A stretch of 64,000 bases of DNA from Pseudoscardovia radai (lineage in GTDB: Bacteria; Actinomycetota; Actinomycetes; Actinomycetales; Bifidobacteriaceae): NCBI RefSeq assembly GCF_002259605.1, contig NZ_MWWR01000008.1, forward strand, positions 1 to 64,000, in the 5' to 3' direction. How positions within the stretch are numbered: position 1 is the first letter of the stretch; every line of letters starts with the position of its first letter. A model generated the notes under the pieces. It did not search any database and was not told the origin of the DNA. It saw only the letters and a program-made list of their open reading frames with translations. Both the position numbers and the translations under genes were made by a program. Of this stretch, positions 22,483 through 54,793 are shown in pieces.

Positions 22483-22980
<498 letters not shown>

Positions 22981-22999: not shown

Positions 23000-23490
23000 G
23001 GGGCGTTTGGTCGCCGAGGTGGGCTTCGGCGGGTGTCGGGGCACCCGTTTAGGTGGGTTTTGGGTGGTTTTCGGCCTGCTGGGTGGTCGGAATGGCGTTG
23101 GGCGGGTGCGGCGGCACCCGTTTAAGGCGGTTTTGGGCTGGTTTTTGACGATTTACCGACCGAGATGGGGTTCGGCGGGTGTGGTGGCACCCGTTTAAGG
23201 CGGTTTTGGGCTGGTTTCGGGGTGTTGGGTGGTCGGAATGGCGTTGGGCGGGTGTGGTGGCACCCGTTTAAGGCGGTTTTGGGCTGGTTTCGGGGTGTTG
23301 GGTGGTCGGAATGGCGTTGGGCGGGTGTGGTGGCACCCGTTTAAGGCGGTTTGGGGCTGGTTCTTGACGATTTACCGACCGAGATGGGCTTCGGCGGGTG
23401 TGGTGGCACCCGTTTAGGTGGGTTTTGGGTTGGTTTCGGCCTGCTGGGTGGTCGGAATGGCGTTCGGCGGGTGTGGTGGCACCCGCTGTA
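23000..23490. repeat. Tandem array: seven copies of a 73-bp unit with palindromic core
   Basis: The core CGGGTG-N6-CACCCG starts at 23030, 23103, 23176, 23249, 23322, 23395 and 23468, exactly 73 bases apart each time. After the core comes a conserved TTTAAGGCGG/TTTAGGTGGG segment, then one of two alternating 31-base fillers (TTGACGATTTACCGACCG type or GGGTGGTCGGAATGGCG type). Copies 3 and 4 are identical. Not coding: 73 is not a multiple of three and no start has a ribosome site. The array ends 68 bases before the phosphatase gene. Confidence 0.95.
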
Positions 23491-52605: not shown

Positions 52606-53448
52606 ATGACGCTTCCTGTTTTCGTGCTCCACGATTCCCCCGCCATGCCGGTTGACGTTGCATTTCCGGTCGGCTCGCACCCGCAGCTTCCCGAATCCGT
52701 GCAGCGCCACGCCTTCAAATCCATGCGACTGGTCGAAGGGGACGAATTCCAACTCACCGACGGCAGGGGAGCACGCATCACGATGCGCGTGGACGATGCC
52801 GACGCGATGCTCGCCCACGTCACCGCCGTCACCGCCGACCCCGCGCCCGCCGTGCGACTCGGACTCATCCAGGCCCTCGCGAAAGGCGGCCGCGACGAGC
52901 AGGCCATCGAAACATCCACCGAAATCGGCGTCGACGCGGTTATGCCGTGGCAGGCGAACCGGTCCATCGTGCAATGGAAGGGCTCGAAGGCTGACAAGGC
53001 GCTCGCGAAATGGCGCGGCGTGCTCGTCGCCGCCACAGAGCAGTCGCGCCGGGCGTGGGTTCCCGACCTCGAGCCGCTGCACACCACGCGGCAGCTGGCC
53101 GAGTGGATCGCCGACGCCACGCGGCGCGGCGACATGGTTATCGTGCTGCATCAGGATGCCACCGACACCTGGGCCGGCGTCGAATCCGCCGCCTCAGCCC
53201 TCGCCGACCGCGCGCGGAACGTGGCCGACGGCGTTTCGGCAGGCGCCTTGGCCGGCGCTTCGGCAGGCGCGGAGCCCGCGACGATCTGGGTAGTCGTCGG
53301 ACCGGAAGGCGGCATAGCGGACGATGAGGTCGCGCGCTTCGTGGAGGCCGGCGCCCGCAGTTGCGTCATCGGCAGCACGATTCTGCGGGCCTCGACCGCG
53401 GGGCCGGTGGCACTGACGCTTCTCGCCCGCGCCCTCGGCCGGATCTAG
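52606..53448 (+). CDS. rsmE: 16S rRNA (uracil-1498-N3)-methyltransferase RsmE
   Basis: 280 residues. An N-terminal PUA-like part (LPESVQRHAFKSMRLVEGDEFQLTDGRG) precedes the SPOUT methyltransferase core: ALAKGGRDEQAIETSTEIGVDAVMPWQANRSI and the SAM-binding WVVVGPEGGIADDEVARFVEAGA with STILRASTAGPVALTLLARAL at the knot. It methylates U1498 of 16S rRNA. An Ala/Gly-rich insert (about 205-225) is extra to the usual 245-residue form. The 84-bp array begins about 55 bases after the stop. Confidence 0.93.
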   Translation: MTLPVFVLHDSPAMPVDVAFPVGSHPQLPESVQRHAFKSMRLVEGDEFQLTDGRGARITMRVDDADAMLAHVTAVTADPAPAVRLGLIQALAKGGRDEQAIETSTEIGVDAVMPWQANRSIVQWKGSKADKALAKWRGVLVAATEQSRRAWVPDLEPLHTTRQLAEWIADATRRGDMVIVLHQDATDTWAGVESAASALADRARNVADGVSAGALAGASAGAEPATIWVVVGPEGGIADDEVARFVEAGARSCVIGSTILRASTAGPVALTLLARALGRI

Positions 53449-53504
53449 CCCGCGCCCGGCGCCCGGCGCCTGCAGCCAGGCCCGGTTCCCTCGTTTCCCC
53501 CACG

Positions 53505-54313
53505 GTGCCTCTCACTGGCACTCCGCCCGCCAGTGAGAGTGACTGTTGGGGTTGGGGTTGTTGGGAATGGGCGGGTTTTTCTCCAAGGGTGCCTCTCACT
53601 GGCACTGTGCCCGCCAGTGAGGGCGACTGTTGCAGAGGAAGCCCAGTGTTTTCAACGAGGGAATTGTCAACAGTGCCTCTTACTGGCACTGCGTTCGCCA
53701 GTGAGAGTGACTGTTGCGGGGGAATCCTAGTGTTTTCAGTGGTGGGATCGTGAACGGTGCCTCTCGCTGGCACTCCGCCCGCCAGTGAGGGCGACTGTTG
53801 GGGTTGGGGTTGTTGGGAATGGGCGGGTTTTTCTCCAAGGGTGCCTCTCACTGGCACTGTGCCCGCCAGTGAGGGCGACTGTTGCAGAGGAAGCCCAGTG
53901 TTTTCAACGAGGGAATTGTCAACAGTGCCTCTTACTGGCACTGCGTTCGCCAGTGAGAGTGACTGTTGCGGGGGAATCCTAGTGTTTTCAGTGGTGGGAT
54001 CGTGAACGGTGCCTCTCGCTGGCACTCCGCCCGCCAGTGAGGGCGACTGTTGGGGTTGGGGTTGTTGGGAATGGGCGGGTTTTTCTCCAAGGGTGCCTCT
54101 CACTGGCACTGTGCCCGCCAGTGAGGGCGACTGTTGCAGAGGAAGCCCAGTGTTTTCAACGAGGGAATCGTCAACAGTGCCTCTTACTGGCACTGCGTTC
54201 GCCAGTGAGAGTGACTGTTGCGGGGGAATCCTAGTGTTTTCAGTGGTGGGATCGTGAACGGTGCCTCTCGCTGGCACTCCGCCCGCCAGTGAGGCCCACC
54301 GTTGCGGAGGCCG
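53505..54313. repeat. Tandem array: ten copies of an 84-bp palindromic unit in 252-bp higher-order repeats
   Basis: The palindrome CTCACTGGC-N9-GCCAGTGAG (CTCGCTGGC or CTTACTGGC on the left arm in some copies) starts at 53511, 53595, 53679, 53763, 53847, 53931, 54015, 54099, 54183 and 54267, each 84 bases apart. Three successive unit types (A, B, C) form a 252-base block that is repeated three times, nearly base for base, plus a final A unit. The gaps between palindromes are G+T-rich on the plus strand. Frames stay open because 84 is 28 codons, but no start has a proper ribosome site, so I take it as non-coding. It fills the space between rsmE and the HIT gene. Confidence 0.96.
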
Positions 54314-54433: not shown

Positions 54434-54793
54434 ATGGCTGAAGAGAACGACTGCCTGTTCTGCAAGATCGCCGCCGGACAGATTCCGAGCACCAAGGTGT
54501 ACGAGGATGACACCGTCTACGCTTTCGAGGACATCAACCCCGTCAGCGAGGTGCATGTGCTGGTGATTCCGAAGAAGCATTACCCGAATGCGGCCGCCGT
54601 CGCATCCGCGGACCCGCAGCTGTTCGCGCATATCGTGGAAACCGCCCAGGCCATCGCCGACAAGCGCTGCGACGGGGCGTTCCATCTGCTGTTCAACACC
54701 GGCGAGGCCGCCGGCCAGACCGTTTTCCACTGCCATGCGCATGTGCTCGGCGGCAAGCCGGACGCTGCGAAGCTGGTCAAGGCCCTCGCCTGA
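54434..54793 (+). CDS. HIT-family nucleotide-binding protein (HinT-like)
   Basis: 119 residues from ATG 54434, with AAGGAG five bases upstream; the frame runs open from 54302. CLFCKIAAGQIPSTKVYEDD opens the fold and FHCHAHVLGG carries the histidine triad H-C-H-A-H. HinT proteins hydrolyse purine phosphoramidates. Next to phoH-ybeY-era in many Gram-positive bacteria. The upstream array would be part of its leader only if transcription comes from rsmE. Confidence 0.92.
   Translation: MAEENDCLFCKIAAGQIPSTKVYEDDTVYAFEDINPVSEVHVLVIPKKHYPNAAAVASADPQLFAHIVETAQAIADKRCDGAFHLLFNTGEAAGQTVFHCHAHVLGGKPDAAKLVKALA

What the first reader, a model, noticed from the sequence alone, without database searches (positions are those of the whole stretch)
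53505..54313. Ten 84-bp palindromic units organised as 252-bp higher-order repeats
CTCACTGGC-N9-GCCAGTGAG occurs ten times exactly 84 bases apart. Units A, B and C differ from each other, but the A-B-C block of 252 bases is copied three times almost without change. This is the architecture of satellite-type higher-order repeats: old divergence of 84-base units, then recent block amplification. Such order is rare in compact bacterial chromosomes.
Basis: seen in the sequence. Interest (0 to 1): 0.78.

Follow-up and report, generated by a model that had tools for sequence, protein, structure and literature searches.

The report
Genome-wide 84-bp palindromic satellite in Pseudoscardovia
The ten repeats are one of about 42 intergenic arrays of the same 84-base palindromic unit scattered through this Pseudoscardovia genome; relatives in the genus carry different repeat families of similar design, so this looks like a fast-evolving, satellite-like kind of bacterial repeat that is spread without any transposase we could recognise.

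Summary
In detail: ten dyads, exact 84-bp period, order-3 (252-bp) blocks 99% alike. It is one copy of a genome-wide family. I mapped 215 units in 45 placements (about 42 loci); all lie between predicted genes. Each array is (49-bp dyad + 35-bp linker)n + dyad and ends sharply at dyads. Blocks of order 2, 3, 4 and 5 occur elsewhere.

Of 189 Bifidobacteriaceae genomes, only this one has the expansion; a second has one two-unit locus. Three relatives have no array between rsmE and HIT. Sister species carry other palindromic satellites (74, 71, 106 bp); this genome also has 93-, 74- and 73-bp families. One (71 bp) sits in a low-GC island of a species of another genus.

Opposite arms vary independently, so a conserved RNA or ssDNA hairpin is not supported. 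Loop length (11) is invariant and linker length (35) nearly so, while sequences diverge. Linkers are found flipped in place. A single dyad on contig C35 is a near-copy of an array on C30, joined through 9- and 6-bp microhomology. No REP transposase was found in the assembly.

Best reading: a REP/BIME-like extragenic palindromic satellite, amplified by recombination or template switching. Function is inferred, not shown. Copy number is uncertain because contigs break at arrays.

The parts
53500..54304 (+). Family A array: ten 49-bp dyads separated by nine 35-bp linkers, bounded on both sides by a dyad
53500..53751 (+). 252-bp higher-order block 1 (units A-B-C); linker cores oriented R,F,F
53752..54003 (+). 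252-bp higher-order block 2
54004..54255 (+). 252-bp higher-order block 3
54256..54304 (+). Closing dyad (A type); the array ends at GTTG without a linker
53511..53537 (.). Inner palindrome of the first dyad (CTCACTGGC-N9-GCCAGTGAG), repeated every 84 bp to 54293
52606..53448 (+).
54434..54793 (+). Downstream gene, HIT-family protein (119 aa); name from general knowledge

Best explanation
The array is one locus of a lineage-specific, dispersed, extragenic palindromic satellite (family A) of a Pseudoscardovia species; it works like REP/BIME-type repeats. Shown: the unit is a directional 49-bp dyad plus a 35-bp linker; arrays of 1-10 units begin and end with dyads; array polarity is constant while individual linkers occur flipped in place; 2- to 5-unit blocks have been amplified; all mapped arrays lie between predicted genes; orthologous sites in relatives lack the array. 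Inferred: arrays grow by unequal recombination or replication slippage between repeats; linkers flip by recombination or template switching between the inverted arms of neighbouring dyads; new loci are seeded when part of an array is copied into a new site through short microhomology (one clear case, C30:255068 to C35:41367). Selection confines arrays to intergenic DNA. Fixed loop length and strongly conserved half-sites suggest that the dyad is also read by a protein as double-stranded DNA, unidentified.
For: 204 matches genome-wide against 1 for the reversed-pattern control; 215 units in 45 placements. None of the 45 overlaps a predicted gene, in loci chosen around arrays; the window is 85% coding. 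Linker-like signal ends at the outermost dyads. Linker core at offset 10 in 100/100 forward and 41/41 flipped linkers. Block orders 2-5. Empty rsmE-HIT sites in three relatives. Single dyad at C35:41367 replaces 33 bp of the G001 sequence; its left 16 bp match unit 2 of C30:255068 at 15/16 and its right side starts like unit 4 (GCGGGGGCATCG); shared TCAGCGATC and GGCATC at the joins. No Y1 transposase in this assembly. 71-bp arrays in another genus were found only inside a 53-57% GC island.
Against: Sharp dyad boundaries and an invariant 11-nt loop (142/142) are more than plain slippage predicts and could mean a dedicated recombinase or binding protein. Only one insertion junction is clean enough to read, and the microhomology was noticed after the fact. 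No reads, expression or strain data. Gene calls come from a home-made codon model that first produced shadow ORFs and was retrained. The assembly is 91.5% complete, so a transposase could be missing.
Confidence: 0.55

Rival explanations
1. Binding array for a double-stranded-DNA-binding protein (nucleoid protein or chromosome-organising factor): each dyad binds a dimer or tetramer at two boxes per arm, and host selection keeps the arrays.
For: Half-site positions are far more conserved between arrays (mean identity 0.89) than loop (0.58) or linker (0.44). Loop length is always 11 and linker 35 in 156/170 although linkers differ at about 17 of 35 positions between arrays. Arms vary independently. 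P. suis has an unrelated sequence with a similar two-box half-site.
Against: No 10.5-bp periodicity in conservation; other families have periods of 71, 73/74, 93 and 106 bp, not all whole helical turns. Near-total absence of family A in sister species argues against an essential host site. No candidate protein.
Confidence: 0.2
2. The dyads are the ends of a non-autonomous mobile element moved by a dedicated enzyme (RAYT-like, integron-like or unknown) that recognises the palindrome.
For: Arrays are bounded by dyads, single dyads occur, high copy number in one lineage, empty sites in relatives.
Against: No Y1_Tnp (PF01797) in this genome, G001 or G002; the one in P. suis sits next to a TnpB-like gene, as in IS605. 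No integron integrase: best match in this genome 94 bits against a cut-off of 265. The only clean insertion carries linker remnants and microhomology rather than a precise end.
Confidence: 0.17
3. Transcribed RNA hairpins (mRNA 3'-end stabilisers or terminators).
For: Arms can pair; intergenic location.
Against: No compensatory change: Watson-Crick pairing 0.813 observed against 0.826 for shuffled partners. Placement 20 co-directional, 10 convergent, 8 divergent does not differ clearly from background gaps (p=0.07; the non-significant excess is convergent), and eight lie between divergent genes. No repeat matched an Rfam family in the regions searched.
Confidence: 0.06
4. Assembly artefact: the tandem copies are misassembled.
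For: Six contig ends lie in or beside arrays, so short reads do not span them.
Against: About 42 loci with different unit sequences, higher-order block sizes and flanks; single and two-unit arrays occur; P. suis has comparable arrays (of another family) in another assembly.
Confidence: 0.02

Closest known systems
REP / REPIN / BIME elements (e.g. Pseudomonas fluorescens SBW25 REPINs, PMC3116915)
   Same: High-copy extragenic palindromes, species-specific families, two inverted half-sites with a spacer; ordered tandem clusters are described for REPINs.
   Different: Here tandem arrays are the rule, with higher-order blocks; no RAYT found; no GTAG or CGTC tag seen in the consensus; no compensatory change between arms; 8 of 38 arrays sit between divergent genes.
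GTAG- and CGTC-tagged palindromic repeats (PMC3733652)
   Same: Intergenic palindromes in many phyla, some without a known transposase.
   Different: Reported units are 20-40 bp with an unpaired tag at one end and predominantly between co-directional or convergent genes; ours are 49 bp in 84-bp arrays.
Eukaryotic satellite DNA with higher-order repeats (alpha satellite type)
   Same: Divergent monomers, near-identical multi-unit blocks, lineage-specific families.
   Different: Arrays of only 1-10 units dispersed at many intergenic sites; each monomer is a long palindrome. General knowledge.
CRISPR arrays
   Same: Palindromic repeat plus fixed-length spacer, repeat at both ends.
   Different: Linkers are homologous to one another, are found inverted, and repeats diverge between and within arrays.
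Integron attC sites / CALINs
   Same: Imperfect palindromes with AAC...GTT ends and a poorly paired stretch between two boxes.
   Different: No cassettes, no integron integrase, no extrahelical bases seen.

Membership tests
REP/REPIN/BIME | High-copy palindromes confined to intergenic DNA | tested here: met
   215 units, 45 placements, none overlapping a predicted gene, in loci chosen around arrays
REP/REPIN/BIME | GTAG or CGTC tag at the palindrome foot | tested here: not met
   Dyads start (C)AAC and end GTT(G); judged from the consensus, no separate tag scan was run
REP/REPIN/BIME | Associated RAYT (Y1 transposase, PF01797) gene in the genome | tested here: not met
   No match in this genome (91.5% complete), G001 or G002; the P. 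suis match sits beside a TnpB-like gene
REP/REPIN/BIME | Compensatory changes that keep the hairpin | tested here: not met
   Pairing slightly below shuffled expectation
REP/REPIN/BIME | Excision or transposition observed | not testable with these tools
   Needs reads or experiments
Satellite DNA with higher-order repeats | Tandem monomers of one length with multi-unit blocks more alike than adjacent monomers | tested here: met
   Lag analysis, TRF period 252
Integron attC / CALIN | Integron integrase (TIGR02249) in the genome (CALINs may lack it) | tested here: not met
   Best match in this genome 94 bits, in the genus 106; cut-off 265
Integron attC / CALIN | attC structure with extrahelical bases and R/L boxes | tested here: inconclusive
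   AAC/GTT ends and a 3-nt poorly paired centre seen; no attC model available
CRISPR | Unique spacers between near-identical repeats | tested here: not met
   Linkers share a core motif at a fixed offset and recur; repeats diverge
CRISPR | cas genes nearby | not tested
   No cas search was run
Structured RNA family | Match to an Rfam model or covarying stem | tested here: not met
   No repeat matched a family in the regions searched; no covariation

The most novel reading that the evidence does not exclude
The genus Pseudoscardovia maintains a rapidly turning-over set of palindromic satellites that share an architecture (outer box with AAC/GTT end, about 3 poorly paired nucleotides, inner box, loop, mirror image, fixed linker) but not sequence, because an unidentified host protein or recombinase reads and propagates such dyads: a bacterial counterpart of fast-evolving satellite DNA with its own machinery.
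Probability: 0.18. Interest if true: 0.85.

Novelty: new variant of a known kind. Interest (0 to 1): 0.62.

Why it matters
The best-known bacterial palindromic repeats are REP-type elements, thought to be moved by RAYT enzymes. Here a compact genome carries several satellite families with higher-order blocks, in-place linker inversions and lineage-specific replacement, with no recognised mobilising enzyme. It offers a small test bed (P. suis is a cultured strain, DSM 24744) for how satellites are born, amplified and replaced, and what keeps their spacing rigid.

Tried and rejected
Helical phasing (84 = 8 x 10.5): no 10.5-bp periodicity in conservation and other families have other periods. RNA or ssDNA hairpin under selection: no covariation. 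RAYT-driven REPs: no PF01797; the P. suis copy sits beside a TnpB-like gene. Integron-like arrays: no integron integrase. Coding repeat: the 886-aa minus-strand ORF overlaps HIT and the next gene, and the same frame is open in only 12 of the arrays with four or more units. Polarity relative to genes: + elements 7 codir+/2 codir-, - elements 5 codir-/6 codir+, no clear bias. Plasmid and viral origin: no match. First P. suis pattern had the wrong loop length and found nothing; corrected. The first gene model gave shadow ORFs and was retrained. Literature searches found no description of these repeats in Pseudoscardovia.

Full report
OBSERVATION. The ten palindromes are real, at the stated place and exactly 84 bp apart; shuffled sequence gives 0.07 matches in the whole window. 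The conserved dyad is 49 bp, so the array is 53500-54304: ten dyads, nine 35-bp linkers. Identity between units is 0.99 at lag 3 and about 0.67 at other lags up to 5, which confirms the 252-bp blocks.

IT IS A GENOME-WIDE FAMILY. The window lies on contig 34 of a 2.44-Mb, 35-contig draft. The motif has 204 matches genome-wide, 1 for the reversed control. In about 414 kb fetched around the matches I found 215 units in 45 placements, 1-10 units each. Some placements are probably one locus seen twice: C16:34374 and C31:256 share an identical 107-bp right flank, and C20/C23 and C32/C33 have similar units at facing contig ends, so about 42 loci. Arrays made only of degenerate units elsewhere could have been missed. 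Gene arrangement is 20 co-directional, 10 convergent, 8 divergent (7 unassigned), not clearly different from other gaps (p=0.07).

ANATOMY. Element-oriented consensus: CAACRGT sss YCTCRCTGG - CA N8 R - CCAGYGAG R sss ACYGTTG. Every array whose ends are seen starts and ends with a dyad; linker-like composition stops within a few bases outside. Loop polarity is the same throughout each array, 23 placements + and 22 -. Linkers carry a 16-bp core always at offset 10 in one orientation (100/100) or at offset 10 after reverse-complementing (41/41); 108 are forward, 42 reverse, 20 undecided, often mixed within one array. So whole linkers have flipped in place between the inverted arms of neighbouring dyads. 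Linker length is 35 in 156 of 170, and the loop is 11 nt in all 142 arm pairs found without assuming it, although linkers of different arrays differ at about 17 of 35 positions. Opposite arms do not covary: Watson-Crick pairing 0.813 against 0.826 shuffled. I therefore do not favour a conserved RNA or ssDNA hairpin; what is conserved is half-site sequence and spacing.

EVOLUTION. A search of 189 Bifidobacteriaceae genomes finds family A only here and at one place in G002, which holds two units, the locus matching the six-unit array at C16:29285. The genus contains Pseudoscardovia suis: its contig NZ_PGFC01000001.1 has the length of G003:C1, and the UBA2724 MAG contig that of G001:C13. The species of the window itself was not identified. 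rsmE-HIT gaps in three relatives are short and array-free; without its array our gap would be 176-183 bp against 193 and 145 bp in G001 and P. suis. Higher-order blocks of order 2, 3, 4 and 5 occur in other arrays.

A JUNCTION. At C35:41367 a single dyad lies between flanks 95-98% identical to G001. It replaces 33 bp of the G001 sequence, and about 345 bp are missing nearby. Its left 16 bp match unit 2 of array C30:255068 at 15/16, its dyad at 46/49, and its right side begins like unit 4 of the same array. The joins share TCAGCGATC and GGCATC with the G001 target. This fits copying from an array by microhomology; it is one case, read after the fact.

OTHER FAMILIES. The same genome has an 82-bp palindrome with 93-bp period beside many family A arrays, a 74-bp family found in all four genomes of the genus and in none of the 185 others, and a 73-bp family with 219-bp blocks inside the window at 23007-23485. 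P. suis has a 71-bp family whose 50-bp dyad has a similar two-box design with another sequence, and a 106-bp family. The 71-bp family has 77 matches in P. suis, 36 in G002, 1 in G001, 0 here, 9 in one species of another genus, G030, and a lone match in G033. In G030 it sits inside a region of 53-57% GC against 60-61% next to it, with sortase- and pilin-like genes (names are my reading, no family scan). This suggests passive transfer without further spread.

MECHANISM. I infer growth by slippage or unequal recombination, linker inversion through inverted arms, and seeding by microhomology copying. A dedicated enzyme is not excluded: boundaries are sharp and the draft is incomplete. No Y1 transposase is present in this assembly and no integron integrase reaches the cut-off. 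Helical phasing was tested and not supported.

KNOWN KINDS. It works most like REP/BIME repeats but fails the tag, RAYT and covariation features; REPIN papers describe some ordered tandem clusters and transposase-less classes exist. I file it as a new variant of extragenic palindromic repeats, not as a REPIN. No paper on these repeats was found in the library searched.

LIMITS. Draft assembly with contigs ending at arrays; no reads, expression or binding data; copy numbers are provisional.

Noticed in passing
window 23007-23485: A second tandem array with 73-bp units and a 219-bp higher-order block, containing the small palindrome GGGTGYSGTGGCACCC; the same family recurs at C34:100310-100566 (L116).
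   Followed up: partly
L034, L117 and flanks of many family A arrays: An 82-bp palindrome (AACAATGTGATGGSTTGCGGAC...GTCCGCAAGCCATCACATTGTT) in tandem with an 11-bp linker (93-bp period), often half-copied beside family A arrays, forming mosaic elements.
   Followed up: partly
L119-L121; G001, G002, G003: A 74-bp palindromic satellite (CGAGGGTGCAC-GATT-GTGCACCCTCG) found in all four Pseudoscardovia genomes held and in none of 185 other Bifidobacteriaceae genomes.
   Followed up: partly
L167, L168 (G030:C7:256000-288000): A low-GC region in a species of another Bifidobacteriaceae genus with sortase/pilin-like genes carries the P. suis-type 71-bp repeats.
   Followed up: partly
L124 (G003:C1 near 292 kb): P. 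suis TnpA-like (PF01797) and TnpB-like genes, IS605-type, next to a 71-bp palindromic array; the linkage may be accidental.
   Followed up: partly
G002:C111:30000-36249 (L123): Flanks of the two-unit array are 91-98% identical to the window's genome although rsmE is only 77% identical, suggesting recombination or MAG contamination.
   Followed up: no
window 22593-22703: Hexanucleotide tandem repeat (CTGTTC)x18.5.
   Followed up: no
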